From Ruania halotolerans (GTDB taxonomy: Bacteria > Actinomycetota > Actinomycetes > Actinomycetales > Beutenbergiaceae), in NCBI RefSeq assembly GCF_021049285.1, contig NZ_CP088017.1:3297380-3361379 (forward strand): a stretch of 64,000 bases of DNA, in the 5' to 3' direction. Below are positions 36,562 through 53,889 of this stretch, one piece after another. The notes under the pieces are model-generated. The model was not told the origin of the DNA, did not search any database, and saw only the letters and a program-made list of their open reading frames with translations. Made by a program: the position numbers and the translations under genes. Every line of letters starts with the position of its first letter. The stretch's first letter is position 1.

Positions 36562-36600
36562 AGCCCTAGTCCACCACAACCCGAGGCTCGTGCGGTGGCG

Positions 36601-37372: not shown

Positions 37373-37388
37373 TCGTGCTCAACGATCA
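37370..37388. terminator. Bidirectional hairpin containing both stop codons of convergent genes
   Basis: TGATCGT (37370-37376) and ACGATCA (37382-37388) form a perfect 7-bp stem with loop GCTCA. The first three bases are the ROK gene stop and the last three are the flippase stop, so one short palindrome closes both genes. Confidence 0.55.
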
Positions 37389-38921
37389 CGCACCGGTTCC
37401 CTGCCCTCGACCCCTGCGCCACAGATCGACGTTGAGCCTGCGACGATCGAGAGCACACCACCCCACCAGCAATCCACCTCCGACGATGATCGTGAGAGCC
37501 AGAGCGATCGGGTCGTCACGGCCCAGCAACGCCTGGACTGCGGCGGCGGTACCTCCCACGGTGAGCACTGGGACGGCGAGGGCGTAGCCGACCGATCGTG
37601 GCTCGATCCGCACCCCCACGAGCAGCCGTACCTCGATCGCGGCGAGCAAGGCATCGACCATCATGCTCAGCGCCCACGCCAAGGCGGCACCGATGATCCC
37701 GATCACCGGCACGAGGACGAGATTCCCGATGATGTTCAGGACCAGCGCGACCAGCTTGTTCAGCGCCGCCCACCCGCTGTGCCCACTCATCAGCAAGACG
37801 GAGTGGATGTTCCCCGCGGCCATGGTGATCACCGATCCGAGTGCGAGCACGGCCAGGGCATCGGACCCGGCGACGAAGCCGGGTCCGAGCCAGCCAAGAA
37901 CGGTGGGCGCGAAAACACCAAGCGTGATGTAGATCGGCGTGCTGAGCAGCACCAGCCACATCGCGGCTACACGGTAGAGACTCTGCACCTGCGCGACGTT
38001 CCCCTCAAACATGAAGTGGCTGAAACGCGGTGACACGACCACGCGAATTGCCGTATCGACAATCAGACCGGCCGCGATCAGCCGGCTCGCCCCGCCGTAC
38101 ACGCCTGCTGCGGCCGTCCCGGCGAGGATGCCGACCAGGACGACGTCCAGCCATAACACCGACTGCTCGAGCCCCACTGCGAGTGTGCGCGGGACCGCGA
38201 ACCGCACCATGGCGCTCGTGCGTTGCCGGGTCGGCCACCAGCGCCGCGGCTGATCGGGTTGCTCGAGAGCGCTTACCTGCCGCACGAGGACGAGCACGGC
38301 TGCGATCATCCCGAAGGTGAGAGGCACCGCCCAGGCGCCCACAGCGATGCTGGCTGCACCTCCGAGCAGCCCGATCACGGCCACCAGGACCGGTCGCGCC
38401 ACGGGGACTGCGACGCTGCCCACCAGCACGAACGGAAGGACGCCACCGAGGCCGCGGGTACCGGCCAGTGCGACCGTCATGACGGCACCGGGTGCAACGA
38501 ACCAGGCGAGGAGGCGCAATGCCGAGACCAGCTCCTCGCCCTCCGGCCCGGCGACAAAGGGAGCGACGATCGCCAGCAGGAGGCCCCCGAGCGCTCCCGC
38601 CAGAACCACGACGACCAGCAGGAACACCAGCGCCCCGCGAGCACCTCCCGGATCGCTCGCGCGCAACCGTGGCATCAACCACACCGCGACTGAGTCCATA
38701 CCGCACTTGGCCAACCCGACGGTAATGGAGAACGCGGCGATCGCCTGCAGCACCACTCCGGCGCCATACTCGCCGAAGGTGCGTGCGATCACGAACGTGA
38801 GCACGAAACCCATCAACGCGTTCAGTGCCGCCCCGCCGAAACTGATCAGCCCGGATCGGGCGAGTAGCCGAGACTCACCGTCGTCAGGGTCTGACGCGGC
38901 CGGCACTTGCTCGGACGTCAT
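37386..38921 (-). CDS. Oligosaccharide flippase family protein (Wzx/MOP superfamily)
   Basis: A polytopic protein of 511 residues with about 12-14 hydrophobic segments and the Wzx-like opening LARSGLISFGGAALNALMGF. In the MOP superfamily such proteins flip undecaprenyl-linked oligosaccharides across the membrane. Two ATGs compete (38927, 38921); GGGAG fits the second best. It lies downstream of the wecG-like and wzz-like genes on the same strand, giving the export half of a Wzy-dependent pathway. The C-terminal tail (RRRLNVDLWRRGRGQ) is basic and cytoplasmic. Confidence 0.87.
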   Translation of the reverse strand: MTSEQVPAASDPDDGESRLLARSGLISFGGAALNALMGFVLTFVIARTFGEYGAGVVLQAIAAFSITVGLAKCGMDSVAVWLMPRLRASDPGGARGALVFLLVVVVLAGALGGLLLAIVAPFVAGPEGEELVSALRLLAWFVAPGAVMTVALAGTRGLGGVLPFVLVGSVAVPVARPVLVAVIGLLGGAASIAVGAWAVPLTFGMIAAVLVLVRQVSALEQPDQPRRWWPTRQRTSAMVRFAVPRTLAVGLEQSVLWLDVVLVGILAGTAAAGVYGGASRLIAAGLIVDTAIRVVVSPRFSHFMFEGNVAQVQSLYRVAAMWLVLLSTPIYITLGVFAPTVLGWLGPGFVAGSDALAVLALGSVITMAAGNIHSVLLMSGHSGWAALNKLVALVLNIIGNLVLVPVIGIIGAALAWALSMMVDALLAAIEVRLLVGVRIEPRSVGYALAVPVLTVGGTAAAVQALLGRDDPIALALTIIVGGGLLVGWCALDRRRLNVDLWRRGRGQGTGA

Positions 38922-38950
38922 CCTCATCTCCCTGACTTGGCCACCCGTGC

Positions 38951-39727
38951 CTACGACGAGCGAATGCGGCGCCCACGGACATACTGCCGAGCAAGTCGAG
39001 CGATGAAGGCGGGGTTGCCCAGAAGGTACCGCCGGGCGACGTGTCCAGGATCAATGAACAGTCTGCCCAACCATTCCAGCCCAGCTCTCGCCATCCACCG
39101 CGGCGGCCGAGCGATACGTCCACTCACGACGTCGAAGAGGCCGCCGCAGGTGAGCATGGCCGACACTTTCAGCCGGGAGCGGTAGGTGTCCACCCACTGC
39201 TGCTGCAGTGGATCGCCGAGCCCGACGAACAGGATGTCCGTACCGAACTCGTTGATCCGAGCGATGACGTCGTCGATCTGATTCGCAGCCACGTACCCGT
39301 GGTGAGCATCGATCCGCGCTGCCGGGGTGCGTTCCACAAGCCGTGCCGCGGCACGTTCGGCGACGCCCGGCTGACCCCCATAGAGAAAGATCCGGTGCCC
39401 TGCTGCCGCCGCGCGATCGACGAGCGGGTGGATGAAATCGGTGGTCGCCACGCGCTCAGGAACGCGCACGCCCAGCAATCGCGCAGCCCAGACGACGGAT
39501 TGACCGTCGGCGTAGGCAAGATCGGCAGCGCACATCCGAGTGCGTAGCTGGAGATCGCGCGCCGCCTGATTGCAGGCATGTGCGTTCACTCCGACGGCGA
39601 GCCGCGCTGGACCGGGTTCGTCGACCCAGGAGAGGACGTGCGAGATGACGTCCTCCTCAGTGACAGCGTCGACCCGGAGGTTCAGCACACGTACGGACTC
39701 CCATGGCGCAGATTCCGGGGTGCTCAT
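38951..39727 (-). CDS. WecG/TagA/CpsF family glycosyltransferase
   Basis: The 258-residue protein shows the family block LAYADGQSVVWAARLLG, RVATTDFIHPLV, FLYGGQPGVAERAAARL and VGLGDPLQQQWVDTYRSRL. WecG and TagA add N-acetylmannosamine-type sugars to a lipid-linked first sugar at the inner face of the membrane. In this locus it is the probable second-step transferase after the polyprenyl sugar transferase. The start overlaps the wzz-like gene by 4 bases (39724-39727). Confidence 0.92.
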   Translation of the reverse strand: MSTPESAPWESVRVLNLRVDAVTEEDVISHVLSWVDEPGPARLAVGVNAHACNQAARDLQLRTRMCAADLAYADGQSVVWAARLLGVRVPERVATTDFIHPLVDRAAAAGHRIFLYGGQPGVAERAAARLVERTPAARIDAHHGYVAANQIDDVIARINEFGTDILFVGLGDPLQQQWVDTYRSRLKVSAMLTCGGLFDVVSGRIARPPRWMARAGLEWLGRLFIDPGHVARRYLLGNPAFIARLARQYVRGRRIRSS

Positions 39728-41229
39728 CGGGCTCCTTCGCGGAGCGCCCGATCAGAGGCGGAAGGCAGCGGATGCGGTCGCGTCCGGCTGCGCGGCACCG
39801 TGATGACGGCCAGCAGGGGCACGCCCGATGCGGCGAGCTCGGCGATGCTGTCGTTGATCCGGTCCGTGTGGGTACTGTCCTTGACGACCACCAGGACTGC
39901 CGCCTCACAATGCCGTTCGGCGGCCAGTCGGCTCGGCGCGGGCGCATCTGCGCTCACGGTGACGAAGCGCAGGTCGGCGGTTGCTGTCCCGGTCAACCGC
40001 TGCCGGACAGCGGCGGTGATGATCGGGTCCGGCTCGGTGATCTCAGTTCCAGCGCCGCCAATCGCCACGGTCAAGGTCGGCACCACCGGGCATTCGTACT
40101 CCTGCAACAGACCGGCCGTCCGCGTGGGCTCAAGCTCCAGTCCCGCCACCACCAGTTCGGTGCTGATCTCGTCCGGAGCGGGCAGCACCAGATCAACAGT
40201 GGACCGATCCTGAGCGAACACCATCGCCAGATTCGCGGCCACATCGGCTGGGGCGGGCGTGTGGTCCAGGATGACGATCCGGCGCGTCTGCTTCGGAAGA
40301 TCGACCAGGATGAGCTCACGCGCGAGCCGCAGCCCGGCCAAGTCGCCATCTCGCGCCGGAATCCTCGACTCGGCCCCCGGAAGTGCCACGATCACTCCGG
40401 CGCCGGTGATCAGCGCGATCTCGGCCCGACTGCCCACCCGCCGATCCAGTTTGTTGGCCAGGAACGCAAGCACAAGGCCCAGGAGGAGGCCGCCCAGAAC
40501 GCCTGATGCGGCGATGGTGCGCACATTCGGCGCCGTCTCCAGCGGGTTCTCCTGCGCTGGTGAGAGGATCACCCCTCCCACGGTGTTGATGCTCTCCAGT
40601 ACGTTCTTGCGGGTGATGAGGCTGTTGATCTCGATGGTGACCAACTCACGGTCGCTTTCGGCCTGATTGGCCTCGCTGCTACCCGGTTCAGCGGCCGCGG
40701 AGGCTGCATTCGCACGGACCAGGTCCTGGCGCAACCCGGTGAGCTGGTCGTCGATCATCTCGATCATGCTGGACAGGCGTGCCCGCGCCTGGGCCTCGCG
40801 GTAGTCCAGATAGGCCGCCGCAATCCCATCGGCACCGTCACGTGCGCTCTCTGGGCTGTGCGCCGTGTAGGAGATCTGAAGCACCGTCGCATCGGCAACC
40901 GGAGTGGCCTCACTTGCCTCGCGGATCTCATTCGGGCTGCGTGGTGTGTCGAACTGCGCAGATGCCAGGCTGGCGACGGAGTACGACGTCGCGATGGAGG
41001 CCTCGGTACTGCCGTCGATGAGATCGGACGCCGACTGGGATGACTGGAACGGGTCGCTGGCGATCACATTGATCTGTACGGACGCAGTCGCGGAGTAGGT
41101 TGCCGGCGTCACCACGAGGTAACTGGCTGCGAGCGCCGCCCCGATGACGGTCACCACCAGGATTAAGAGCCAGCGCCCCCGGAGAGTTGCTCCGTAATGC
41201 GCCAGGGTCGACTCGGGCGTCTCCCCCAT
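39724..41229 (-). CDS. Wzz/CapA-type polysaccharide co-polymerase with degenerate kinase-like domain
   Basis: The 501-residue protein has TM1 near residues 20-40 and a Wzz-type extracellular domain (ATYSATASVQINV; coiled coil around 150-215 with SMIEMIDDQLTGLRQDL). TM2 is near 240-260 and a cytoplasmic domain of about 240 residues follows. That domain resembles a BY-kinase fold: ELILVDLPKQTRRIVILDH and PADVAANLAMVFAQ stand where a Walker A would be. But the GK(S/T) residues are missing, so ATP binding is doubtful. Such proteins set chain length with Wzy. GAGGAGG precedes the ATG. It is divergent from the Wzy-like gene. Confidence 0.83.
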   Translation of the reverse strand: MGETPESTLAHYGATLRGRWLLILVVTVIGAALAASYLVVTPATYSATASVQINVIASDPFQSSQSASDLIDGSTEASIATSYSVASLASAQFDTPRSPNEIREASEATPVADATVLQISYTAHSPESARDGADGIAAAYLDYREAQARARLSSMIEMIDDQLTGLRQDLVRANAASAAAEPGSSEANQAESDRELVTIEINSLITRKNVLESINTVGGVILSPAQENPLETAPNVRTIAASGVLGGLLLGLVLAFLANKLDRRVGSRAEIALITGAGVIVALPGAESRIPARDGDLAGLRLARELILVDLPKQTRRIVILDHTPAPADVAANLAMVFAQDRSTVDLVLPAPDEISTELVVAGLELEPTRTAGLLQEYECPVVPTLTVAIGGAGTEITEPDPIITAAVRQRLTGTATADLRFVTVSADAPAPSRLAAERHCEAAVLVVVKDSTHTDRINDSIAELAASGVPLLAVITVPRSRTRPHPLPSASDRALREGAR

Positions 41230-41305
41230 GAACCGCCTCCTCGCTAGAACTGGCGCGCCCTCGCAGCACTTGTGCTACGCGATCGGGTAGGGCATCGTTC
41301 CAAGG

Positions 41306-42670
41306 ATGCCACGGCCCGCGCTGCGAGGTCGCTCTTCGAGCACATCCTCCGCCGAACGTGACTCGTCCTCGCCCATGGAGCCACGTGTGTTCGCCCACCG
41401 GTCTGCGCCGGTTGGCGTGCTCCCCACCTGGCCGCTCGCGGCTGGGTTCGCGGGCTATCCCCTGTGGTGGGTGCTCGGAGTCGGGGACCTCATCTGGCCG
41501 GTGGTCGCTCTCGTGATGATGTGCTATTTGGCGACACGAGGCCGACTGCACGTTCATGTGCCACGCGGATTCGGCCTCTGGCTTCTCTTCCTCGTCTGGA
41601 TGGCGGTCTCGGTGGTTCAGCTCGACACCGCCGGCAGGTTCCTCGGGTTCACCTTCCGGGCCTTGCTCTACGTCAGTGCCACGGTGATCTTCGTCTACGT
41701 CTACAACGCACGCGAGCAGATCACCCGCCACTACGTGTCCCGGGTAGCCTCGGTGTTTCTCGCCGTGATGACGGTCGGTGGTCTCCTGGGCGTGGCGTTC
41801 CCCCTGCTCTCACTACGGACGCCGTTGGCGTCGGTGCTGCCGAGCAGCATCGCCGGGAACGACTTCGTCCAGGAGATGGTGGTCCGTCGAGTCACACAGT
41901 TCAACCCGGACGCCTGGGCTCCGGGCACACCCCGGCCGAGTGCCCCCTTCGTCTACACCAACGGCTGGGGCTACGCGTATGCCATCCTCCTTCCGATCGT
42001 GATCGCCTACGCAATCGAATCCCGAGGCACGCGCCGACTCCGTTGGCTGGTCCCCACCATCGCACTCTCCACAGTGCCGGCACTGCTGAGCCTGAACCGT
42101 GGCATGTTCGTCGGGCTGGGAGTCGCCCTCGTGTACGTGCTGATCCGTGCGATCCTCTCCCGGAACATCAAGGTCATCGGTGCCGTCCTCACGCTGACTG
42201 CCGTGGGCGGACTGGTCTTCGTCGCACTTCCTACCGAGGAACGGCTCTCCCAGCGCCTCGAAGGCAGCAGCACGACCGAGGACCGCTTCGCCCTCTACGT
42301 CGAGACCATCGAGCGCACTGCCGAGTCGCCGATCATCGGCTTCGGCGCACCCCGGCCCTCTGACGCCCTGGGTGTGGCGGTCGGGACTCAAGGGCAGGTG
42401 TGGATGGTGGTGTTCTCCCACGGATTCGGAGCAATCGTTCCCTTCGTCGGGTGGTTCCTCTCCGTGTTCCGACGATCGTGGCAGCTAGGGGACCCGGTCG
42501 GCCTGGCCATGGGCGCCGCCATGGCCAGCACCTCGGTGACGATCTTCTTCTACGGCATCCTGCACACCGGTCTGATGCTCGTCTTCATGATCGCTGGCTC
42601 GGTGATGCAGCCCTCGTCCGGGGGATCTCCGGAGCAGCTCGATCCTGCTCGCCCGGCCGGAACGGTGTGA
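41306..42670 (+). CDS. O-antigen ligase/polymerase-like membrane protein (Wzy/WaaL family)
   Basis: The 454-residue polytopic protein has about 10-11 hydrophobic segments, a large extracellular loop around 190-225, and a second loop holding GSSTTEDRFALYVETIERT and PIIGFGAPRP. The latter resembles the conserved Wzy_C pattern in which Arg and His residues matter. Polymerases of this type join repeat units and ligases move the chain to an acceptor; the two cannot be told apart by sequence alone. The first ATG (41306) gives a Ser/Arg-rich tail; ATG 41375 is an alternative. The wzz-like gene is 76 bases away, divergent. Confidence 0.83.
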   Translation: MPRPALRGRSSSTSSAERDSSSPMEPRVFAHRSAPVGVLPTWPLAAGFAGYPLWWVLGVGDLIWPVVALVMMCYLATRGRLHVHVPRGFGLWLLFLVWMAVSVVQLDTAGRFLGFTFRALLYVSATVIFVYVYNAREQITRHYVSRVASVFLAVMTVGGLLGVAFPLLSLRTPLASVLPSSIAGNDFVQEMVVRRVTQFNPDAWAPGTPRPSAPFVYTNGWGYAYAILLPIVIAYAIESRGTRRLRWLVPTIALSTVPALLSLNRGMFVGLGVALVYVLIRAILSRNIKVIGAVLTLTAVGGLVFVALPTEERLSQRLEGSSTTEDRFALYVETIERTAESPIIGFGAPRPSDALGVAVGTQGQVWMVVFSHGFGAIVPFVGWFLSVFRRSWQLGDPVGLAMGAAMASTSVTIFFYGILHTGLMLVFMIAGSVMQPSSGGSPEQLDPARPAGTV

Positions 42671-42673
42671 CCG

Positions 42674-43579
42674 ATGCCCCGTCTCACAGTCCTGCTGCCC
42701 GTGCGCAACAGCGCTGGCACGATCCGCACGGCGGTGAGATCGGTGCTCCGGGCCCTGCCGCGCGATGCATCGCTGGCAGTTCTGGACGATGGCAGCACCG
42801 ACGAGACGCCAGCCATCCTGGACGCGGTAGCGTGCCGGCAACTGCAGGTGCTGACCTCGTCTGGGATAGGCGTGGCCGAGGGTCTGAACACACTCCTGGA
42901 GCGAACGGACAGCGAATACGTCGCTCGGATGGACGGCGACGACGTCACGCTGCCCTGGCGGTTCACCGTGCAACAGAGGGCGCTCCGCCAGGCGGGAGCG
43001 GATGTGACATTCACGACGATCGCGCTGCTGCACCCGCGTCGGCTGCAGCCGACGCTGCCGATACCGATCCCGCCAGCGGCGTTCGGGCTGCATCTGATGG
43101 TCACTAATCCGGTCGCCCATCCGGCAATGTTTGCCCGGCGGTCGTCCATCGCACAGGTGGGTGGCTATCGCCAGGTGCCGTCGGAGGATTACGACCTGTG
43201 GCTCCGGATGACGCTCGCCGGGGTCCGCCTGCACAAGAGCGCCGAGCCCGGGCTCCTCTATCGCGTGCACGAGAATCAGATCACCGCATCCACTCAGTGG
43301 CGGCAGTCGTCCTGGTCAGACCCAGACATTCAGGCCTCCTACGGTGCGCTCAGCCGTGAGCTGCTCGGAGTGCCGATACCGCGGCTGCTGACTCTCGCCG
43401 CCGACGCAGGAACCACCCGGGCATCCTTTGAGGAACATATCGACACCCTCACGAGCGCACTCCAGCGCCGCGGCTCGGCCCTGCCTCACCGTGACCGGTG
43501 GTATCTCAGCAGGACCGTCGCCACCAGGGTCGCGAACGCTCGCAGGGTCTATGCCCAGGCGCGCCGAGAACGGGAGTGA
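42674..43579 (+). CDS. Family 2 glycosyltransferase (GT-A fold)
   Basis: The 301-residue protein has the GT2 opening LTVLLPVRNSAGTIRTAVRSV, LAVLDDGSTDETP, and the metal/nucleotide-sugar motif YVARMDGDDVTLPWRF (Asp-Gly-Asp). A later GGYRQVPSEDYDLWLRM segment carries the ED catalytic base. No membrane segment is evident, so it is a cytosolic-face transferase for the repeat unit. It begins 3 bases after the Wzy-like gene and is translationally coupled. The sugar is unknown. Confidence 0.92.
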   Translation: MPRLTVLLPVRNSAGTIRTAVRSVLRALPRDASLAVLDDGSTDETPAILDAVACRQLQVLTSSGIGVAEGLNTLLERTDSEYVARMDGDDVTLPWRFTVQQRALRQAGADVTFTTIALLHPRRLQPTLPIPIPPAAFGLHLMVTNPVAHPAMFARRSSIAQVGGYRQVPSEDYDLWLRMTLAGVRLHKSAEPGLLYRVHENQITASTQWRQSSWSDPDIQASYGALSRELLGVPIPRLLTLAADAGTTRASFEEHIDTLTSALQRRGSALPHRDRWYLSRTVATRVANARRVYAQARRERE

Positions 43580-43589
43580 GCGGAGCAAG

Positions 43590-46500
43590 CTACCCGATCG
43601 ACGCCTCCATGCTGAAGGCCAGACTCTCGGCTACCGGATCGCTGGAATGAACTTCGACGGCGATCGTGTTCTCCCCCGGTTCCAGCGTCGTGATCGGGAC
43701 AACGAGCTCCACGGATTCCTCCCTGTCCGGTGCCGCGTCGCCGACGTCGGCCGGCGTCCGGGCTGTCACGTCATCCGGAAGGTTGAGTCGACCGACCTCC
43801 TCTCCATTCGCGTACACGATGAGCCCTAGACCGCTCACCGTGCTCAGCAGCAGCTCACCGGTCGCGGCCTCGGGGAGGGTGAACTCGGTGCGGTAGTACG
43901 AGGTGATCGGCGCAGATCCGAGAACGGTGCTCAGTTCGGGGTTCATGTCGTGAGGACCCCACCCCAACGGCGCCGCCCCGGACTGCCATGACGTCACGTC
44001 GGTGTCCGGCTGCTGCCAGTCGTCAACCACGTCGTCCTCGCCGTCGTAGTAGCGCCATTGTGCGGCCTCATCGATCACGACCACGGCATCAGCTGGCGTT
44101 GCCGGACCCACGGAGTCGCCGTGTCCCTCATCGGCGGCACGCTCCTCACCCTCGGCCGGCTCCTCGACCTCCACCGGCTCCCCCTGCTCGGCCGGCTCCT
44201 CGACCTCCACCGGCTCCCCCTGCTCGGCCGGCTCCTCAGCCTCCACTGGCTCCTCGGCCTCCACCGGCTCGTCAACCTCGCCCGCCTCGTCGTCGGGCGC
44301 TCGCCGCTCCGCTGCCTGCTCCTCGCCTGTTTCGGTCTCGGCAACGGCACCGTCCGCATCCTCATCGGCAGCTGGCTCCTGCTCGACAGGTGCCTGGGCC
44401 GGCCCGGCCAGTGCGACGAACGCGGGAAGGAGGACAGCGCTCATCTCGAAGCTGTGGGTTGGAGTACTGCGATAGTTGGAGTGCACCTCGGCAGTCACCG
44501 TGTTGTCCCCGGGATCCAGGTCGGCGACGGGCACGGTGAACTCGACCGGTTCGGCCGCACGGGGCGCAGCATTCGCGTAGGTGTTCGCCGACACCGGGCC
44601 CGCATCGATGTTCTCCCGTGCCACCTCGACCCCATTCAGGTAGACCACGATCCCATCGTCGGCGCGGGTGCTGAACTGCACGTCTCCCGTGGCGTTCGGG
44701 GGGAGGGCAAACTCGGACCTGTAGTAGGACGCGAGCGGTCGAGGTGAGGCATCCGTGGTGAGCTCGGTGCCCAACTCCGCCTGTCCCCAGCCCAACGGAG
44801 CGGCACCGGTCGGCCACGACGAGACGTCGGTGCCCGGCTGTTGCCAATCCGCGGTCACCGGATCCGCACCGTAGTGGTAATGCCACGAGGAGCCGGCTCC
44901 GATCACCACGCCCGGTTCGGGGTCCGGGTCGGGGTCGGGGTCGGGGTCCTCGATGGGCGGTTGTGTCCCGAAGGTGGCGACCGCGCTCAGCTCGAAGCTG
45001 TGACTGGGGGTACTGCGATAGTTGGAGTGCACCTCGGCGGTGATCGTGTTGGTCCCGGTGGTGACCAGGTTGCCGGGGACGGTCGCCGTGACTGGATTGG
45101 CCACGGCATTGCCTGCGGACACCGCGGTGGTGGCGTAGACGCCGGGGCCCGATGCCCCCGGATCGACGTTCTGCCGCAACACCTCGACGCCGTTCACGTA
45201 CACCACGATGCCGTCATCGGCACGTGTGGTGAGCTGGACCGATTCGACGGTGCTCGCATCGACCACGTCGAAGGTCGAGCGGTAGAAGGAGGCGAGTGGC
45301 CGCAACGGTGCATCGCTGGTCAGCGTCGTCCCGAGGTCGCTGTGGCCCCACCCCAGCGGGGCACTGCCGGTGGGCCAGGAGGAATGGTCGAAGCCCTGAT
45401 TCTCCCAGCCTGCTGCTGGCCCCTCGGCATCGAACCAGTACGACCAGGCCGAACCGGCCGCGATCAACGTCGGATCTTGCGGGCCAGGCTCAGGCGGATC
45501 AACGACGACCGTCGCTGTCGACGCCGACCGATTGTGCGCAGCGTCGACGGCCCGCACCGCGAAGGAGGAGTCGTCGGAGACTCGTGGCAGGGTAACCGTG
45601 GTCTGTGTCGTGGCCGCCAGGACACGTCCCGAGTTGAGTACCTCGTATGACTGTGCGCCACCGACCTCGTCCCACGTCAGACGGACCTCCTCGCCGACCG
45701 CCTGCCCGTCGAGATTGGCCGGAACCGCGGGTGCACTGGTGTCCCGGGGGGCGAATCGGACGAATCCACCGGACCATTGCCGCGTGTATCCCGCACGGAC
45801 CGAAGAGGTGAAGTCCCCGCCCTCCCACAGTGTGCCTGTGGAGTCGACGAACAGCGCCCATGCGCCCGCGCCGTTGCGTTGATGCGTCTCCGGGCTGAAC
45901 TCCGGGTCGAATGCGGCGGTAGTCGCACTCCAGGCACCGGTCGCATTGATGCGGTCCGCCGAGGTCCACGAGGTGCCCACGTTCGGCCAGGAGCTCGCGC
46001 CGGAATAGTTGGCGTCGTAGCAGTGGCAGCCGCCATAGACCGTGACGCCGTCGGAGGCGAGCGCCTGGAAGTCTCCGCCCCGTTGCCCGATATTGGTGCT
46101 GAGCAGACTGAAGTCGTCGCGGCTGTAGGAGTAGAGATTGTGTTCAGATCCTCCGAGCCAGACTCGGTCGCCGACCTCCAGCACGGCTTGTTGGTAACCA
46201 GACCGTTCGGAACTGCTCTTCGGGATGTCCCAGGCCAGCGCCGTGGCATCCGAGGTGCGCAATGCAGCGCCCTTCAGAGTCTCGACGGCGTCGGGCTGAT
46301 TGAACTTCGCCGCAGTGAAGTATCCGGCGAAGTACACCCGATCACCCTGGTCGGAGGCATCGAGATCGACGACCGTCCCGTTGAACTCCGGGTTCCAACT
46401 CCGGTCGGGTGTCCCGTCGGTCACGGAGAACCGCGCTCCGGCCCGGGTGTACGCCTCGCCATTCTCGGTGCCACCCGTGGAGTGGGTGAAGGCGCCGCCC

Positions 46501-47837
46501 ACGTACAGCCACTCGTCGTGCACGTCCACTGATCGCACCGCAACCGCGCTGCCACCGCCGAGATAGTTGATCAGCCGACCGGAGAAGCCCGGATCGAGCT
46601 CCCCCGTGTGTGCGTCGAGCACTGCGAGTCCTTGGCGTGGCTCACCGTTCGTGGTCGTGAAGAAGCCACCCACGGCGAGGCGTCCGCCGGGCAACGCTGC
46701 CAGCGATTTGATCTGATAGTCGAACGTCGGACGGAAGGTGGAGATCCACGCGCCGGTCTCACGGTCGAACGCCGCCAGATACGCCTGGCTCTGCCGGTTC
46801 GCACCGCCGGCGGATGTCTGCACGTGTGTGAAGTTGCCGCCCACGAAGATCATGCCGTCCACCTCGGCGAAGGCCGAGGCTTCGTTGCTCCCCTCGTACG
46901 AGTTCGGGCCGTTTCCGAGGCCGTTGAGGCCCCATGTGGTCCGTTCGGCGAAACTCTGGGGGCCAGGGCCCTGGGTGCTCTGGTCGATGCCCCCGGACGG
47001 GACCGTCAGCGCCACGTCCTCACTGGTGAGCTGTGGCCGCAGGAACACCTGGGTGAAGGGACGAGGGTTGATCATCGACGTGCTGCTGCCCCAGATGTAA
47101 CTCGTCGACGACGAGCTGCCTCGGGCGGAGGTGCCGTAGCCGAAACCGGTCATCCAGCCCTGTGCCGATCCTGCCGTCGTGGTGACCCGGCGGTAGAGGC
47201 TGTCTGATCCGAAGTTGGTTGTCGAGCCACCGGTCCGGGTGACGCCGTCGACCCGCCACTGTCCGACACGCTGATTGTTGTAGAACTGCCACGTCCAGGT
47301 GTCCCGCGGGCTCGCGAGCGTGAAGGTGAGGTCTTGCCACTGGGTCCCGCTCTGGTTCAGGGCGCGGCGAAGCCGGATACCCTCAGCCAGGGATGTGACC
47401 GGTTCACCGTTGAGTAGGCCCTCGATCGTCCGGGAGGGTAACTGCCGCGGCGTGAACGCTGCGGTACCCGTGTGCGGTGAACGCACCTGCCCACTGGTCC
47501 CCGACCCCATATTGGATTCGGACCAGCCCTCTCGGCCACGTCCGATCATGACCCAACCACCGCCGTCGGTGGTCTGGTCGCAGTAGAACTGGTCCGGCGC
47601 ACCCAGCTCCGGGGTCCACAACCAGTAAATCCCGTCAGGTGCGTCGTCGTCGTTCTGCTTGATCTCCCAGCACGACGCCGCGGCTGTGGCCTCGGTGAGT
47701 CCGTCGACCGTACCTGGAGGCTCGATGGCCGAGGCACTCTGCTGCGGAAGAATGGCTAGCAGCGGGGCGAGCAGCGCTCCAGCGGTAGCGAAGGCGAGGA
47801 GCCGGTACCGGCTGGGCGTTGGCTGGGAGCGTGTCAC
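43590..47837 (-). CDS. Very large secreted modular protein: GGGW fibrinogen-like domain, propeller-like repeats, Fn3, three jelly-roll-like modules
   Basis: 1415 residues from GTG 47837, chosen for the AAGGA Shine-Dalgarno and the signal peptide that follows (cleavage near ASA37). Residues 50-270 hold a bacterial fibrinogen-like domain with YCD (85-87) and GGGW (92-95). Residues 300-700 hold repeats of the type VGGxFT (332, 389, 446, 503, 672), like DUF5122/delta-60 propellers. Residues 702-780 are a fibronectin III domain. Three related modules at 790-956, 976-1143 and 1252-1415 share APLGWG, FYRS/YYRS, DDGIVVYVNG and NTITAEVHS. A DPDPDP linker separates modules 1 and 2, and an acidic 90-residue Glu/Pro/Val stretch separates 2 and 3. 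No LPXTG or C-terminal membrane anchor is seen. It is probably an exported glycan-binding or adhesion protein of the polysaccharide locus; the function is inferred. Confidence 0.85.
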   Translation of the reverse strand: MTRSQPTPSRYRLLAFATAGALLAPLLAILPQQSASAIEPPGTVDGLTEATAAASCWEIKQNDDDAPDGIYWLWTPELGAPDQFYCDQTTDGGGWVMIGRGREGWSESNMGSGTSGQVRSPHTGTAAFTPRQLPSRTIEGLLNGEPVTSLAEGIRLRRALNQSGTQWQDLTFTLASPRDTWTWQFYNNQRVGQWRVDGVTRTGGSTTNFGSDSLYRRVTTTAGSAQGWMTGFGYGTSARGSSSSTSYIWGSSTSMINPRPFTQVFLRPQLTSEDVALTVPSGGIDQSTQGPGPQSFAERTTWGLNGLGNGPNSYEGSNEASAFAEVDGMIFVGGNFTHVQTSAGGANRQSQAYLAAFDRETGAWISTFRPTFDYQIKSLAALPGGRLAVGGFFTTTNGEPRQGLAVLDAHTGELDPGFSGRLINYLGGGSAVAVRSVDVHDEWLYVGGAFTHSTGGTENGEAYTRAGARFSVTDGTPDRSWNPEFNGTVVDLDASDQGDRVYFAGYFTAAKFNQPDAVETLKGAALRTSDATALAWDIPKSSSERSGYQQAVLEVGDRVWLGGSEHNLYSYSRDDFSLLSTNIGQRGGDFQALASDGVTVYGGCHCYDANYSGASSWPNVGTSWTSADRINATGAWSATTAAFDPEFSPETHQRNGAGAWALFVDSTGTLWEGGDFTSSVRAGYTRQWSGGFVRFAPRDTSAPAVPANLDGQAVGEEVRLTWDEVGGAQSYEVLNSGRVLAATTQTTVTLPRVSDDSSFAVRAVDAAHNRSASTATVVVDPPEPGPQDPTLIAAGSAWSYWFDAEGPAAGWENQGFDHSSWPTGSAPLGWGHSDLGTTLTSDAPLRPLASFYRSTFDVVDASTVESVQLTTRADDGIVVYVNGVEVLRQNVDPGASGPGVYATTAVSAGNAVANPVTATVPGNLVTTGTNTITAEVHSNYRSTPSHSFELSAVATFGTQPPIEDPDPDPDPDPEPGVVIGAGSSWHYHYGADPVTADWQQPGTDVSSWPTGAAPLGWGQAELGTELTTDASPRPLASYYRSEFALPPNATGDVQFSTRADDGIVVYLNGVEVARENIDAGPVSANTYANAAPRAAEPVEFTVPVADLDPGDNTVTAEVHSNYRSTPTHSFEMSAVLLPAFVALAGPAQAPVEQEPAADEDADGAVAETETGEEQAAERRAPDDEAGEVDEPVEAEEPVEAEEPAEQGEPVEVEEPAEQGEPVEVEEPAEGEERAADEGHGDSVGPATPADAVVVIDEAAQWRYYDGEDDVVDDWQQPDTDVTSWQSGAAPLGWGPHDMNPELSTVLGSAPITSYYRTEFTLPEAATGELLLSTVSGLGLIVYANGEEVGRLNLPDDVTARTPADVGDAAPDREESVELVVPITTLEPGENTIAVEVHSSDPVAESLAFSMEASIG

Positions 47838-47863
47838 TGGAGTGTCCTTCACGGGAGGAGTCG

Positions 47864-48520
47864 TTAACAGGCCGGATCGTCGCCGAATGTGCGCGACACG
47901 ATCACCCATGCACCGTCGACCTGATGGAGGGTGTAGATGTTCACAGCACGTGCTGCCGACGGGTCCTGAGGGAGGGGGGCACCAGCGCTGTCGAGCACAC
48001 GCACCTCGCTGGAATCGATGCACGCATGCACCGTCGCCACCGGCGGGGTGGCGGTACTGTCCTGGTCGATCACACTGGCCGAATCGACCACGGCTGAGCC
48101 GGTGCGGGTCCATCCATTGGAGTCGAGTTCGAGGAGCTCCGCCTCGAGCTCGGCAATGATCGTCTCGCCGGCTACTGCGTCGATGCGCTCCGGCACATCT
48201 TCCGCGTCCGGTGCGATTTCAGCTACGGCGGTCACGTACGTCTCGAGAAGGGTCTGCGCCGTATCGTCATCAATGGCGCCCTGGGCCGGCACCTGCGGGG
48301 CTGGGGTTGACGGCGAGGACGGCGACGACGGAGGACTGGGCGAGGGTGGAGGTGCCGACGATGAGGCCGGATCGCGCGCGGAGCCGGTGGGGTCGGCCGG
48401 ATCCGCGGATGACGTCGAATTCTGAGCGATCAGCACCCCCACGAGCACCATGATCAGCACGAGGACAACGCCGAGCAGAACGACCGTTCGTCGGCCGCGA
48501 CCGGCATGGACGCCGTTCAC
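47864..48520 (-). CDS. Membrane-anchored extracytoplasmic protein with Ser/Pro linker
   Basis: The 218-residue protein has a basic start, one hydrophobic segment (VVLLGVVLVLIMVLVGVLIAQ), a Ser/Pro-rich linker of about 40 residues, and a C-terminal globular domain ending GAWVIVSRTFGDDPAC. That domain has the look of small secreted SnoaL/NTF2-like or IMS-like domains (YVTAVAEI...VDGAWVI), but I do not recognise a named family. The start GTG at 48520 overlaps the glycosyltransferase stop by 4 bases, and the giant secreted protein begins 26 bases after its stop. It may help export or anchor the polymer or that protein. Confidence 0.7.
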   Translation of the reverse strand: MNGVHAGRGRRTVVLLGVVLVLIMVLVGVLIAQNSTSSADPADPTGSARDPASSSAPPPSPSPPSSPSSPSTPAPQVPAQGAIDDDTAQTLLETYVTAVAEIAPDAEDVPERIDAVAGETIIAELEAELLELDSNGWTRTGSAVVDSASVIDQDSTATPPVATVHACIDSSEVRVLDSAGAPLPQDPSAARAVNIYTLHQVDGAWVIVSRTFGDDPAC

Positions 48521-49491
48521 AGCCCTCGACCTCGGCGATTGGCCCAGCCCACGAGCACGTGGGCCGGGACGAGGCGAGCGGCGACCACCATCGCTGCGTA
48601 TGCACGCAGCTGGGTGCGATCGCGTCGGAGTGTCGCCACCACCCAACGGCAGGCGTCCTTTCGCTGCCCGAGTGCAGCGTGCGCGAACGCCACCTGGGCG
48701 CAGATCCTGGCCGTCCCCAGCGCATTGCCGGTGAGTTCAGGGTGCTTGCGAAGCAGGTACGTGAGTCCATCGGCGATCGAGTGCCACTTGCTCGCGAAGT
48801 ACGAGGGTCGGTCCCAGTGCACGACCACGAGCGGCTCGGGTACGCAGCGGAGGTCACCGGACTTGGTGGCTCGCAGCAGCAGGTCATAATCCTCGCCGTA
48901 GGACGCCGGAAGCTCCTCGTCCACCAGGCCGATACGACCGAGCAGGTCCGCGCGGCGCCACAGGACGCTGGACGAGTGGACCTCGGGCACCCGCGATCGC
49001 ACGAAGTCGGAGAACCGCAATCGTTCCTCGGCAACGCGGACGTGGCGTCCACCCGGGGATTGGATGACGATTCCGGTCGCGATCCCGATCGCTTCCGGAT
49101 CGGTCCGCCACGTCTCGAGCTGGGCGGTGAGCTTGCCGGCGAGCCACTCATCGTCATCGTCGCAGAAGGCGATCAGCGTCCCGGTGGCGGCGATGATGCC
49201 GCTGTTGCGCCCGCCGGCTAGCCCCGGCGTGCGGCCGTTCGGAATCGTTCGCAGTTGCCGGTTTTCGGGTACAGCGATGTCAGTGAGCCCATCAACCTCG
49301 GTCTGGTCGAAGACCGCGATCACCTCCACCGCACCGCGGTAGTCCTGCACCAGGATCGAGCGCACGGCGTTCCGGAGCAGCTCGGGCCTACTCCGGGTGG
49401 CGATGACGACCGAGACGGTCGGCACGTGCGCCGCTGATTCGGAACGCTCCGCTGCGGACTGGTCGAGCGCTGTCTGTGCGGCCACTGTCAT
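48517..49491 (-). CDS. Family 2 glycosyltransferase
   Basis: The 324-residue GT-A protein has VSVVIATRSRPELLRNAVRSIL, VIAVFDQTEVDG and FCDDDDEWLAGKL (DxD-type motif in an Asp-rich stretch). GLVDEELPASYGEDYDLLLRA carries the ED motif. It lies within an unbroken chain of overlapping genes from the sugar transferase to the giant protein, so it acts in the same glycan. The C-terminus (about 250-320) has two helices typical of extended GT2 enzymes. Sugar specificity is unknown. Confidence 0.92.
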   Translation of the reverse strand: MTVAAQTALDQSAAERSESAAHVPTVSVVIATRSRPELLRNAVRSILVQDYRGAVEVIAVFDQTEVDGLTDIAVPENRQLRTIPNGRTPGLAGGRNSGIIAATGTLIAFCDDDDEWLAGKLTAQLETWRTDPEAIGIATGIVIQSPGGRHVRVAEERLRFSDFVRSRVPEVHSSSVLWRRADLLGRIGLVDEELPASYGEDYDLLLRATKSGDLRCVPEPLVVVHWDRPSYFASKWHSIADGLTYLLRKHPELTGNALGTARICAQVAFAHAALGQRKDACRWVVATLRRDRTQLRAYAAMVVAARLVPAHVLVGWANRRGRGL

Positions 49492-49916
49492 GCTCCCTTC
49501 GAGTCGAGAGAGTCATAGATGAAACGACGCAGGATGGTCGACGACGTCCGCTGCGTGTACGGGAAATAGACCACTCGAGCTCCGACCTCGGCCATCTCCT
49601 GCTCTAGCAGGGCACCCTTGTAGGTGTCCCGCCAGTCATCGCCTTTGAACAGGACGTCGAACGGATTCGCTCGCCACGCCACGCGTTTGTCCTGCGACGT
49701 GTCGGCAACTGCGTGGTCCACGAGCCGAAGCGTCGCGACCACCTCGAGGCGCTCCTGAAACGGGATCACCGGCTCTCGGCCCTTCATCTCCAGGAGCGAT
49801 TCGTCAGTGGCTACCCCAGCGATCAGGACATCGCACCGCCTTCGTGCCTCCCTGAGGATGTTCAGGTGGCCGATGTGAAACAGGTCGAAGCCGCCTGGTA
49901 CGTATCCCACGGTCAC
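49488..49916 (-). CDS. Cytidylyltransferase-like nucleotidyltransferase (HxGH family)
   Basis: The 142-residue protein starts GYVPGGFDLFHIGHLNILREA with the nucleotide-binding HIGH. It has the substrate segment GVATDESLLEMKGREPVIPFQER and LFKGDDWRD, and ends YFPYTQRTSSTILRRF, where TagD-type enzymes have RTxGISTT. It should activate a phospho-alcohol as a CDP (or ADP) derivative. The next gene upstream encodes a CDP-alcohol phosphotransferase overlapping by 4 bases, so the two probably make and transfer a CDP-linked small alcohol such as glycerol, ethanolamine or a polyol. The identity is not determinable here. Start is GTG 49916. Confidence 0.85.
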   Translation of the reverse strand: MTVGYVPGGFDLFHIGHLNILREARRRCDVLIAGVATDESLLEMKGREPVIPFQERLEVVATLRLVDHAVADTSQDKRVAWRANPFDVLFKGDDWRDTYKGALLEQEMAEVGARVVYFPYTQRTSSTILRRFIYDSLDSKGA

Positions 49917-50713
49917 CGGAGCGTCCTTTCGTCCGGGTCGCTCAGCTGTCGGAACCGACGTCGCATGGAGATGACCGAGTGCACAAGGTTGAGGACGAGC
50001 AGCGCTGCATAGGCAGGCACGAACGCGCCGGGCAGGCCCCAGAGCACGTACAGCCAGCACAGCACGCCGGTATCGGTAGGCAACAGAAAGAAGGACTGCC
50101 CCTGGCGTGGGATCGGTGCGGTGCCGGAGGGCGCCAGTTGCTCTGCCAGCATCTGGCTGAAGAACTGACCGGTGGTGACCACCGCGTAGAGCAACGGCAA
50201 CACGAGCACCCACGGCGCGGTGCCGGTCTGGAACAGCGCAACCAGGGTGCACAGATGGAGCATGGGCATGCGGACCGCGTCAACGACGTGGTCCAGCCAC
50301 TCCCCGGCGCGGCTACTGCGCCCGCTGAGGCGGGCAACCTGACCATCTGCCGAATCGAGGAGGTATCCCGTCGCGAGCAGCATCGCCACCGCTACTCCGG
50401 CGGGAAGGGAAGCCGGCCTCAGCACCAGCACGGCCATCCCTGCCAACGAGACCAGGCCGCTGATCGCCGTCACCTCGTTCGGGCCGAGTCCGCTCCGATA
50501 CGCGGCGGCGGCAGCGTAGCGGGCCAGTCCACGATTCACCCAACGGGTGTAGGCCGGCACGCCCGGCCCAGGTTTCTGCCTCCCACGGAGCACGTCCAGT
50601 GCCTCATCGAAGGCCAGCGGCGGCCGACCGGCTGCCGGTCGCGCCTTCGACCGAGCGTCATCGGTGGCCGGTGGCGTGCCGAAGCTCTCGTGATCGAGAC
50701 GATCAGTACGCAC
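49913..50713 (-). CDS. CDP-alcohol phosphatidyltransferase family membrane protein
   Basis: The 266-residue protein has the complete family signature D-x2-DG-x2-AR-x8-G-x3-D-x3-D in DSADGQVARLSG through GEWLDHVVDA, plus about six membrane helices. Such enzymes transfer a phospho-alcohol from CDP to an alcohol or lipid acceptor, or the reverse, in the membrane. Classical lipid synthases of this family stand alone; this one is embedded in a glycan cluster beside its own nucleotidyltransferase. I favour GTG 50713 (GGGGGTAGGG upstream), overlapping the sugar transferase by 11 bases; GTG 50734 is possible. Confidence 0.9.
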   Translation of the reverse strand: MRTDRLDHESFGTPPATDDARSKARPAAGRPPLAFDEALDVLRGRQKPGPGVPAYTRWVNRGLARYAAAAAYRSGLGPNEVTAISGLVSLAGMAVLVLRPASLPAGVAVAMLLATGYLLDSADGQVARLSGRSSRAGEWLDHVVDAVRMPMLHLCTLVALFQTGTAPWVLVLPLLYAVVTTGQFFSQMLAEQLAPSGTAPIPRQGQSFFLLPTDTGVLCWLYVLWGLPGAFVPAYAALLVLNLVHSVISMRRRFRQLSDPDERTLR

Positions 50714-52223
50714 CCCTACCCCCGAACACCGCACGGAACGTGCGACACAAGATGGTCACGTCCATCAGGAAAGACCAGTTGTCCACGTAGTTGAGATCGA
50801 GGCGCACCGTCTGTGCCCAGTCCAGGTCGGACCGACCACTCACCTGCCACAGCCCCGTGAGCCCAGGCTTGACCCGTAGGCGTTGCCGCGCATCGGCGTC
50901 GTAGCCCGCAATCTCCTCGCCCAGCGGCGGGCGCGGACCGACGAGTGACATCTCGCCCCGCACGACGTTCCATAGCTGCGGCAGTTCGTCGAGGGAGAAC
51001 CGCCGCAAGACGCGTCCGACGGGCGTGACCCGTGGATCCTGGCGCATCTTGAACATCACCGCGTTGCCATCGTTGTGCGGTAGCAAGTCGGTGCGACGCC
51101 TGTCGGCATCGATGTACATCGTGCGCAATTTGATCATCGTGAACGGAACCCCATCTCGACCGATCCGCGTCTGCCGGTAGTACGCGGGGCCGGCTGAGGT
51201 GAGGCGAACGAGGAGTGCACTGGCCGTCAGCACCGGGAGGGAGGCGAGGAGGAGCAGCATGCCGAGCAATCGGTCGATGAGCGACTTGACTGCTCGCTGG
51301 GTTCGGCTCGCCCCGATCGCGACCGTGAGCAACGGGCTTCCGGAGACGGGTCGCAGTGCCACTCGTACCGGGGCGACCTCCTCCATATTCGGCGCGACCA
51401 GCAGTTCGACGCCGTACCGTTCCACCTGCCAGCAGAAGCGCCGCAGGTCGGCTGCTCCCATACACGATGCGGTCACCACGACCACACGGATGCGGTGCTC
51501 GGCGACAACGTCGGCCGCGTGCTCCACATCGCCGAGCACCGGCGCAGCGAGCCAGCCGTCGACCGGTTCGCTCAGGCATGTGCCGACCACCCCGAAGCCG
51601 TAGCGGGGCTGCGCCTCGAACCGGGCGGTGAGCGAGCGCAGCACTTCCGGCTCACCGACCAGGAGGGTGCGGCGCAGCCAGTAGCCATGTCGTCGCCGGT
51701 GCCTGACGAGCGCACGCTGCAGTGAACGTGCCACCAGCACTGTGAGGACGGTCGCTGCAATCGCTGTGAGGAGTTGTCCCGCAGGCACCTCCAGGAGGCC
51801 GATATAGGCCATCGCGACCAGTAGCGACCCCCAGATCCATCCTGCACGCAGGACGGCGCCATACTCGTGTGGGCCGGCGGCTGCCCGGCGCGTGTCATAT
51901 CCGTGCTGCAGCCCGGTGGTGAGCGCGAAGAACGCCCCGGTGGCTGCCGCGTGAGCGGCCAGCAGCGCCGGCGCCATTGCCAGCGGAGCCGTCACCACGG
52001 CCACGATCACCGTGGCGATCAGGGTGTCGCCGGCAGCGGCACCCCACCGGTACGCGTGGCTCCAGGCGCCGTCTGGCCCGGTGTGCGATCGAGCGCCGGT
52101 CCTCGTCTCGGCCAGTGCGGCGGTGGCGGTTGGCTCGGGGGAAGCGACCGTCCCGTAGGGTGAATCGCTGGGGCAGACCTCAGCCAGCTGGTCTAGCACC
52201 ACAGCATTCACTCTCCCTCGCAT
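50703..52223 (-). CDS. Exopolysaccharide polyprenyl-phosphate glycosylphosphotransferase (initiating sugar transferase)
   Basis: About 506 residues: four to five N-terminal membrane segments, a Rossmann-like middle (LLVGEPEVLRSL, VLGDVEHAADVVAEHRI), one more membrane helix, and the catalytic WbaP/CpsE-type domain. The latter has AGPAYYRQTRIGRDGVPFTMIKLRTM, SLDELPQLWNVVRGEMSLVG with PRPP, and KPGLTGLWQVSGRSDLDW near the end. It puts the first sugar-1-phosphate on undecaprenyl phosphate and so starts the polymer. It is the first gene of a six-gene minus-strand operon. The start is uncertain: ATG 52223 is used, but GTG 52211 or 52202 fit the purine-rich GAGGGAGA at least as well. Confidence 0.92.
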   Translation of the reverse strand: MRGRVNAVVLDQLAEVCPSDSPYGTVASPEPTATAALAETRTGARSHTGPDGAWSHAYRWGAAAGDTLIATVIVAVVTAPLAMAPALLAAHAAATGAFFALTTGLQHGYDTRRAAAGPHEYGAVLRAGWIWGSLLVAMAYIGLLEVPAGQLLTAIAATVLTVLVARSLQRALVRHRRRHGYWLRRTLLVGEPEVLRSLTARFEAQPRYGFGVVGTCLSEPVDGWLAAPVLGDVEHAADVVAEHRIRVVVVTASCMGAADLRRFCWQVERYGVELLVAPNMEEVAPVRVALRPVSGSPLLTVAIGASRTQRAVKSLIDRLLGMLLLLASLPVLTASALLVRLTSAGPAYYRQTRIGRDGVPFTMIKLRTMYIDADRRRTDLLPHNDGNAVMFKMRQDPRVTPVGRVLRRFSLDELPQLWNVVRGEMSLVGPRPPLGEEIAGYDADARQRLRVKPGLTGLWQVSGRSDLDWAQTVRLDLNYVDNWSFLMDVTILCRTFRAVFGGRGAY

Positions 52224-52306
52224 GCACCTGGAGCCACGCCCGGCGACCTCAGAACGAGATCCCGACGGCTCGCGCCTACTCAAGCAGAGGGTCCCGCTAC
52301 TGGCAC

Positions 52307-53129: not shown

Positions 53130-53154
53130 CTGCGCACTGTATCGGTCACACGGC

Positions 53155-53195
53155 GAAGGGCCCGTCCCGGGAGGTCATCCCTGGACGGGCCCTTC
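53155..53195 (-). terminator. Terminator of the infA-rplQ operon
   Basis: GAAGGGCCCGTCC (53155-53167) and GGACGGGCCCTTC (53183-53195) form a perfect 13-bp stem with a 15-base loop, about 60 bases past the rplQ stop. There is no U-run. It separates rplQ from the hydrolase gene. Confidence 0.75.
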
Positions 53196-53256
53196 GTGAG
53201 ACGGGCGAGCCGGTCAGGCTCGTGGGCGCCTCGTGTTCCTCACGAGGAGGAAGTTC

Positions 53257-53853: not shown

Positions 53854-53889
53854 GATGTTTCCTCAGTTTCTTGTGATGGGCCGCGCGGC

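What the first reader, a model, noticed from the sequence alone, without database searches (positions are those of the whole stretch)
43590..47837. 1415-residue secreted protein with a GGGW domain, propeller-like repeats, Fn3 and three new-looking modules
The architecture is unusual: bacterial fibrinogen-like YCD/GGGW domain, VGGxFT repeats, Fn3, then three homologous modules of about 165 residues (APLGWG ... YYRS ... DDGIVVYVNG ... TAEVHS). A 90-residue Glu-rich spacer separates modules 2 and 3. Module 3 has lost the DDG and NYRSTP features (VSGLGLIVYANG, SSDP), so it is diverging. Placement at the end of the glycan operon suggests that it binds the polymer or serves as a matrix adhesin.
Basis: partly seen in the sequence, partly recalled or inferred. 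Interest (0 to 1): 0.7.

Follow-up and report, generated by a model that had tools for sequence, protein, structure and literature searches.

The report
Secreted propeller protein of sugar-polymer loci
This large secreted bacterial protein belongs to a widespread, little-studied actinobacterial family that is usually encoded beside genes for making a surface sugar polymer, and it most likely binds that polymer and holds it together or in place.

Summary
The ORF is real: 43590-47837, minus strand, GTG start with ribosome-binding site, 1415 aa. Order: export signal, fibrinogen-like GGGW domain, propeller (seven motifs by eye), Fn3, three homologous ~160-residue modules, with an acidic linker before the degenerate third. 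The modules are not a new fold type: by profile they fall among jelly-roll accessory domains of glycan enzymes (beta-galactosidase, PL4 lyase, GH78 rhamnosidase), though no curated family covers them.

The locus link is strong. Of 64 homologous loci of at least 22 kb, 59 carry at least 4 of 7 core genes of the window's glycan cassette; 0 of 20 control regions carry any. The module is also fused to GH16 and GH26 hydrolases within 10 kb. Other propeller proteins (LamG in 8 of 8 scanned) occur near the CDP-alcohol transferase in 14 of 23 loci without GGGW. Propeller residue H605 is kept in 101 of 102 GGGW-type and 33 of 33 other propellers, D589 in 102 of 102 and 25 of 33; module number varies from 0 to 3.

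Best reading: a secreted, non-covalently held matrix protein of the locus's own polymer, working like (not homologous to) Vibrio Bap1/RbmC.

The parts
47724..47837 (-). N-terminal export signal (residues 1-38)
   Evidence: read by eye from the translation; of 78 proteins in which the script found the ASC motif, 70 have a hydrophobic run of 12+ before it and 8 miss that rule
46968..47705 (-). fibrinogen-like YCD/GGGW domain (residues 45-290), Cys56 and Cys86 invariant in alignment A2
   Evidence: NF040941 at residues 55-98, E 7e-20; 68 of 68 aligned stretches match it; XEEL/intelectin structures by profile, best E 1.7e-10; invariant columns
45756..46886 (-). beta-propeller (residues 318-694), seven GG-x-F-like motifs counted by eye
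   Evidence: DUF5122 / Rax2 matches in the family
46020..46073 (-). conserved propeller motif GGDFQ...GGCHC: Asp589, Gln591, Cys604-His605-Cys606
   Evidence: H605 in 101 of 102 GGGW-type and 33 of 33 other propellers; D589 in 102 of 102 and 25 of 33
45504..45743 (-). Fn3-like domain (residues 699-778)
   Evidence: family profile matches 1k85, E 1.4e-9
44988..45467 (-). jelly-roll module 1 (residues 791-950)
   Evidence: module HMM 204 bits
44442..44906 (-). jelly-roll module 2 (residues 978-1132)
   Evidence: module HMM 187 bits
44079..44441 (-). acidic linker (residues 1133-1253), contains 36-bp tandem repeats
   Evidence: 33% Asp+Glu; repeat array 44150-44279
43608..44078 (-). degenerate jelly-roll module 3 (residues 1254-1410)
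   Evidence: module HMM 138 bits; BetaGal_gal-bd at residues 1314-1390, 23.6 bits, cut-off 27.3
47864..48646 (-). small protein directly upstream, one membrane stretch seen by eye, start uncertain
   Evidence: homologue found in 55 of 78 loci; no Pfam match at E 0.05
48517..49491 (-). glycosyltransferase family 2
   Evidence: PF00535, E 5.7e-17; in 67 of 78 loci
49488..49916 (-). TagD-like cytidylyltransferase (start inferred)
   Evidence: PF01467, E 2.4e-14; in 45 of 78 loci
49913..50734 (-). CDP-alcohol phosphotransferase
   Evidence: PF01066, E 2e-11; in 61 of 78 loci
50703..52283 (-). initiating sugar-phosphate transferase
   Evidence: PF02397, E 1.9e-63; in 43 of 78 loci
42674..43579 (+). 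second family-2 glycosyltransferase, convergent
   Evidence: PF00535, E 1.5e-16; in 21 of 78 loci, and in 1 of 20 control regions
41306..42670 (+). Wzy-like polymerase / O-antigen ligase-like
   Evidence: PF04932, E 1e-6, 29.0 bits, below the cut-off of 31.7; in 67 of 78 loci
39724..41229 (-). Wzz-like chain-length protein
   Evidence: PF02706, E 9.8e-7; in 47 of 78 loci
38951..39727 (-). WecG/TagA/CpsF glycosyltransferase
   Evidence: PF03808, E 4.2e-54; in 23 of 78 loci
37386..38927 (-). Wzx-type flippase
   Evidence: PF01943, E 8.7e-10; in 70 of 78 loci

Best explanation
It is the extracellular matrix protein of the Wzy-type glycan made by the surrounding locus, whose enzymes suggest a phospho-alcohol modification. 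After export through the general secretion route it stays outside without covalent anchoring (no LPXTG, no C-terminal membrane stretch). The propeller with its conserved Asp/His pair and the fibrinogen-like domain form the constant core. The C-terminal jelly-roll modules, strung on Pro/Asp- and Glu-rich linkers, give several weak contacts to the polymer, so that the protein cross-links it or ties it to the cell or a surface. Shown here: the architecture, the conserved genomic link, the fusion of the same module to glycan hydrolases in such loci, the constancy of the propeller residues. Inferred: polymer binding, multivalency, and the cross-linking or anchoring role.
For: 59 of 64 homologous loci of at least 22 kb hold 4 or more of 7 core cassette genes; 0 of 20 control regions hold any of the 7. 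Of 119 genomes of the order, 10 have the GGGW-propeller and 31 the CDP-alcohol transferase, 8 have both (two searches of apparently the same draw; Fisher p 3e-4); in 6 of the 8 the matches lie 1.4-12 kb apart, in the other 2 they are on different contigs of draft assemblies. Of 9 module-hydrolase fusions scanned, 7 pass the curated GH16 or GH26 cut-off, L038 is just below the GH26 one, L085 (cut short) has no match; two also carry malectin. Module profile matches GH78 rhamnosidase 3w5m, E 2e-12. 14 of 23 cassette loci without GGGW have a propeller protein; of their 21 propeller frames 8 were scanned and all 8 have a LamG domain, one also CBM96. No LPXTG or hydrophobic C-terminus in 89 proteins (a few are cut by contig ends). 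Precedent: in Vibrio Bap1/RbmC a propeller binds the exopolysaccharide and other domains face outwards (PMC10102183, abstract and passages).
Against: Related jelly-roll domains in enzymes can be purely structural. The Asp/His pair and CHC may mean an enzyme. Five of 64 loci lack the cassette (0 or 1 of 7 genes). Two of 10 GGGW-propeller genomes (G069, G110) lack the CDP-alcohol transferase at the threshold used, and 9 of 23 cassette loci without GGGW show no propeller protein. Some cassette genes vary (WecG in 23 of 78), so the polymers differ. Only the best 80 of 195 relatives were kept, so rates for distant relatives are unknown.
Confidence: 0.5

Rival explanations
1. It is an extracellular enzyme that trims, cross-links or attaches the polymer; the propeller carries the active site (Asp589, His605, perhaps with Cys604/Cys606 and His566), and the modules only target it to the glycan.
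For: Of the 20 columns kept both in GGGW-type (90% or more) and other propellers (70% or more), the only residues other than Gly, Phe and Tyr are T411, D589, H605 and R694. In the GGGW type Cys604, Cys606, His566 and Gln591 are also 99% kept. The same module is fused to true hydrolases in such loci. One of 68 homologous stretches matches the exoglucanase CbhB model (E 1.3e-11).
Against: No catalytic family is seen otherwise in 68 stretches; the CbhB match and three matches to the RGI_lyase beta-sheet domain I take to be Fn3-type likeness (inference). CHC is absent from 32 of 33 other propellers. The residues could be structural or hold a metal.
Confidence: 0.25
2. It is an outward-facing adhesin or lectin that binds foreign surfaces or glycans; the polymer genes are only co-regulated.
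For: GGGW relates to intelectins and other fibrinogen-like lectins. Outward parts vary most between relatives: 0-3 modules, LamG, PKD, CBM96.
Against: The polymer link holds over twelve families, and the same module is fused to hydrolases of such loci. Only about 50-75 residues of the fibrinogen-like domain align to intelectins, so their ligand site is not shown.
Confidence: 0.15
3. It is an assembly or export factor that acts at the cell surface during polymerisation, together with the small membrane-type protein encoded just upstream.
For: The small protein has homologues in 55 of 78 loci and ends 26 bases before the gene in the window.
Against: No membrane anchor in the protein; 23 of 78 loci show no homologue of the small protein at the threshold used (divergent copies are possible, and some loci are short).
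Confidence: 0.08

Closest known systems
Vibrio cholerae RbmC / Bap1 biofilm matrix adhesins
   Same: Secreted multi-domain proteins with a propeller and sugar-binding folds that work with an exopolysaccharide; there the propeller was shown to bind it (PMC10102183, passages).
   Different: No Bap1/RbmC chain among the PDB hits listed; I did not run a direct comparison. Their propeller has eight blades, here seven motifs by eye; they carry beta-prisms, not GGGW and these modules.
NCBIfam NF040941 fibrinogen-like YCDxxxxGGGW domain
   Same: Clear match, 70.8 bits against 30.
   Different: The model is 46 residues long and names a domain; it says nothing of propeller, modules or function.
DUF5122 / TIGR02608 delta-60 repeat and Rax2 propellers
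   Same: 54, 5 and 30 of 68 homologous stretches match at E up to 0.01.
   Different: The window protein stays below the DUF5122 cut-off. The 36-residue repeat model does not describe the D/H/CHC motif.
Galactose-binding-like accessory domains (BetaGal_gal-bd, BetaGal_ABD2, PL4 CBM-like domain III, GH78 rhamnosidase 3w5m)
   Same: Profile match E 2e-12 to 3w5m; 31, 18 and 10 of 80 single modules match PL4 CBM-like, BetaGal_ABD2 and BetaGal_gal-bd at E up to 0.01.
   Different: No curated family covers the module; module 1 of the window matches none.
Intelectins (XEEL, ITLN1)
   Same: Start of the GGGW domain aligns (best E 1.7e-10).
   Different: Only about 50-75 residues align; ligand site not shown; intelectins have no propeller (recalled).

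Membership tests
NF040941 GGGWT_bact domain | score above curated cut-off | tested here: met
   70.8 bits, cut-off 30
DUF5122 propeller | score above curated cut-off | tested here: not met
   22.9 bits, cut-off 27; homologue L045 passes with 34.3
RbmC/Bap1 | sequence similarity to solved Bap1 or RbmC chains | tested here: not met
   no such chain among 23 hits at E up to 1 for the whole protein, 11 at E up to 1 for the module profile, 26 at E up to 0.1 for the N-terminal profile; that such chains are in the PDB copy is recalled
RbmC/Bap1 | propeller binds the exopolysaccharide | not testable with these tools
   needs purified protein and polymer
GH78-type / CBM67 rhamnose-binding module | profile match to the CBM67 domain of SaRha78A (3w5m) | tested here: inconclusive
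   E 2e-12 for the chain; best stretch 29.5 bits at chain residues 256-351, a second 19.0 bits at 151-209; which one is CBM67 was not established
GH78-type / CBM67 rhamnose-binding module | calcium-dependent rhamnose binding | not testable with these tools
   needs a binding assay
BetaGal_gal-bd (PF21467) | score above curated cut-off | tested here: not met
   window 23.6 bits, cut-off 27.3; homologue L038 passes with 32.1
Sortase-anchored surface adhesins | LPXTG motif and hydrophobic C-terminus | tested here: not met
   none of 89 proteins, the window's included
Intelectin/fibrinogen lectins | conserved calcium and sugar-binding site | not tested
   only the N-terminal part aligns; no structure model available

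The most novel reading that the evidence does not exclude
An undescribed, actinobacteria-wide 'propeller plus exchangeable lectin' system: one constant secreted propeller with an Asp/His (in the GGGW type Cys-His-Cys) site is a regular extracellular partner of Wzy glycans built with a CDP-alcohol transferase. It reads or chemically joins the phospho-alcohol-bearing polymer, while GGGW, jelly-roll, LamG, PKD and CBM parts are swapped to suit each polymer or surface. It would be an independent counterpart of Vibrio's polysaccharide-binding propeller adhesins.
Probability: 0.3. Interest if true: 0.72.

Novelty: new variant of a known kind. Interest (0 to 1): 0.5.

Why it matters
Proteins that organise surface glycans in Actinomycetota are little known (my own knowledge, not searched in full). 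Here one protein family marks a recurring polymer locus in twelve families of the phylum. That gives a handle on an unstudied surface polymer, names residues to test (D589, H605, C604/C606), and offers a possible second case of an exopolysaccharide-binding propeller with swapped outward domains.

Tried and rejected
Enzyme domain in the modules: rejected, the profile matches are to accessory domains. Sortase anchoring: rejected. Origin on a plasmid: no record covers 80% of the GGGW-propeller part; 6 records hold partial, weak matches, 5 Leptospira and 1 Arthrobacter; G+C is 65-69% throughout the locus. Uniqueness of the acidic linker plus decayed last module: rejected. Horizontal gain: the window lies among Microbacteriaceae in the tree, and its genome bears another family label (f1) than G127 and G059 (f19), which I take to be Microbacteriaceae by inference; support is 93 on a long branch, so this stays open. 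A scan of genome contigs with the single protein found nothing; the second and last one, with alignment A1, worked. Papers: listings only. 'fibrinogen-like YCDxxxxGGGW' gave 0 papers; 'DUF5122' or 'delta-60 repeat' gave 1, of which I saw two passages on modelling. Passages only in PMC4690510, PMC12419801, PMC10102183 and PMC5825169.
Full report
Observation. The ORF at 43590-47837 on the minus strand encodes 1415 residues from a GTG with a ribosome-binding site. Module 3 lacks DDG, while the second D and the G are kept in 76 and 78 of 80 aligned modules. The three modules score 204, 187 and 138 bits with one HMM that was seeded with them and refined on homologues.

Setting. The window is bases 3297380-3361379 of a single 4.27-Mb contig. 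The gene is the last of a tightly packed minus-strand unit: initiating sugar transferase, CDP-alcohol phosphotransferase, TagD-like cytidylyltransferase, family-2 glycosyltransferase, a small membrane-type protein, then this protein. A Wzy-like gene and a second glycosyltransferase converge on it; Wzz, WecG-like and Wzx genes follow. The block 37386-52283 lies between truA with a ROK-like ORF and an alpha/beta hydrolase, an rplQ-like ORF (by eye) and rpoA. So the gene is inside the locus, not at its edge.

Own lineage. The genome has one copy. Of 59 genomes searched as relatives, 8 matched at E 1e-5, the own one included; apart from G054 the others match only in part, mostly over the propeller. 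Of the eight genomes of the genus in that list, own included, only the own one has the full protein. In draws of 119 genomes of the order, own included, the module is found in 8 and the GGGW-propeller part in 10.

Relatives. A profile search of the species-genome collection found 195 relatives, of which the best 80 were kept as 78 loci. In the tree of 67 of them plus the window, twelve families are named: Microbacteriaceae, Micrococcaceae, Dermabacteraceae, Dermatophilaceae, Intrasporangiaceae, Nocardioidaceae, Actinomycetaceae, Propionibacteriaceae, Cellulomonadaceae, Pseudonocardiaceae, Streptosporangiaceae and Jiangellaceae. The aligned GGGW-propeller-Fn3 parts are 39-58% identical to the window's. 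All 68 rows match NF040941.

Locus link. tblastn with ten window cassette proteins against the 78 loci and 20 control regions (E 1e-5, one database) gave, of 78: flippase 70, first glycosyltransferase 67, Wzy-like 67, CDP-alcohol transferase 61, small upstream protein 55, Wzz 47, TagD 45, sugar transferase 43, WecG 23, second glycosyltransferase 21. In the controls the only hit was one to the second glycosyltransferase. Of the 64 loci of 22 kb or more, 59 had at least 4 of 7 core genes (CDP-alcohol transferase, TagD, first glycosyltransferase, Wzy, Wzx, Wzz, sugar transferase). The other five are L083, L092, L093, L097 and L120; the last four are extra copies in genomes that have another copy in a cassette locus (L079, L072), and L083 is from a metagenome bin. 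Controls lay at places I picked in relatives' genomes and are not matched for function. At genome level 8 of 10 GGGW-propeller genomes have the CDP-alcohol transferase against 23 of 109 others (p 3e-4); relatedness of genomes is not corrected for.

Modules elsewhere. In 89 proteins (83 with GGGW, six without) the module HMM finds none in 8, one in 31, two in 43 and three in 7; some are cut by contig ends (L068, L075, L104). A six-frame scan of the fetched loci found 22 module-bearing frames without GGGW. Several are hydrolases within 10 kb of the GGGW protein: of 9 scanned, 7 pass the GH16 or GH26 cut-off, two of them with malectin. L038 and L058 are the same DNA, as are the frames of L079 and L097; L058, L062, L079 and L097 were not scanned. 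By established knowledge, sugar-binding modules joined to glycan hydrolases aim the enzyme at its substrate. A hydrolase kept with a polymer locus most likely acts on that polymer, so the module most likely binds it. That is inference.

What the module is. Of 80 single modules, 31 match PL4 CBM-like, 18 BetaGal_ABD2 and 10 BetaGal_gal-bd at E up to 0.01; module 1 of the window matches none. The profile matches Streptomyces rhamnosidase 3w5m at E 2e-12, best stretch 29.5 bits. PMC4690510 (passages) says that this enzyme has a calcium-dependent rhamnose-binding CBM67; I did not establish whether the matched stretch is that domain. Hence: known fold type by sequence, no curated family of its own.

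The constant part. Propellers were aligned from GGGW proteins (102 rows, window apart) and from other propeller proteins in the fetched loci (33 rows, four of them, L043, L044, L046 and L047, from loci without the cassette). Of 20 columns kept in both sets, 16 are Gly, Phe or Tyr; the rest are T411, D589, H605 and R694. H605 is present in 101 of 102 and 33 of 33, D589 in 102 of 102 and 25 of 33. The GGGW type adds Cys604 and Cys606 (101 of 102 each); of the 33 others only L043 has CHC. The two GGGW rows that break the motif are from L110 (His kept) and L097 (His lost). Tandem copies and near relatives are among the rows, so they are not independent.

Sister systems. For all 23 genomes of the draw that have the CDP-alcohol transferase but no GGGW-propeller I fetched the surroundings; four stretches are shorter than 20 kb. 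Fourteen carry at least one propeller frame, 21 frames in all; nine do not; none of 20 control regions has one. Eight of the 21 were scanned: all eight have LamG, seven have PKD, one has CBM96. So the propeller stays while the lectin-like parts are exchanged.

Mechanism. I favour a secreted matrix protein: propeller and fibrinogen-like core plus repeated modules give several glycan contacts on flexible linkers, with no covalent anchor. Vibrio Bap1 and RbmC work in this manner: their propeller binds the exopolysaccharide and other domains face outwards (PMC10102183, abstract and passages). No sequence relation was seen, so this is likeness of working, not membership. The main rival is an enzyme with the Asp/His site.

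Limits. No structure could be predicted. No binding is known. Blade number is counted by eye. That little is in print rests, in a library of open-licence papers only.

Noticed in passing
47864-48646 minus: Small protein with one membrane stretch (by eye) and a Ser/Pro-rich region, no Pfam family, just upstream; homologues in 55 of 78 homologous loci.
   Followed up: partly
L149-L171: Propeller proteins near the CDP-alcohol transferase in 14 of 23 loci without GGGW; 8 scanned have LamG, with PKD or CBM96.
   Followed up: yes
L098-L109: Nine Actinomyces/Schaalia-type loci (L098, L099, L100, L102, L103, L105, L106, L107, L109) give two separate matches to the GGGW-propeller part, perhaps tandem copies.
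   Followed up: no
L059, L123, L127: Acidic linker of 179, 81 and 102 residues before a lower-scoring last module, as in the window.
   Followed up: partly
26491-31489 minus: rRNA genes: 23S 26491-29612 and 16S 29963-31489.
   Followed up: yes
35656-37372 and 52413-54894: The glycan locus sits between truA and rplQ-like/rpoA genes; in G127 (L049, L038) truA- and glmM-like frames also lie just before the homologous locus (read by eye).
   Followed up: partly
56629-61470 minus: Two adjacent large LuxR-type regulators, one with NACHT/AAA matches.
   Followed up: no
L071 12787-14168: Further module stretches lie in other frames just after the GGGW protein of this Brachybacterium locus; cause not examined.
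   Followed up: no
Leptospira plasmid records: Hypothetical proteins about 28% identical to part of the propeller in five records.
   Followed up: no
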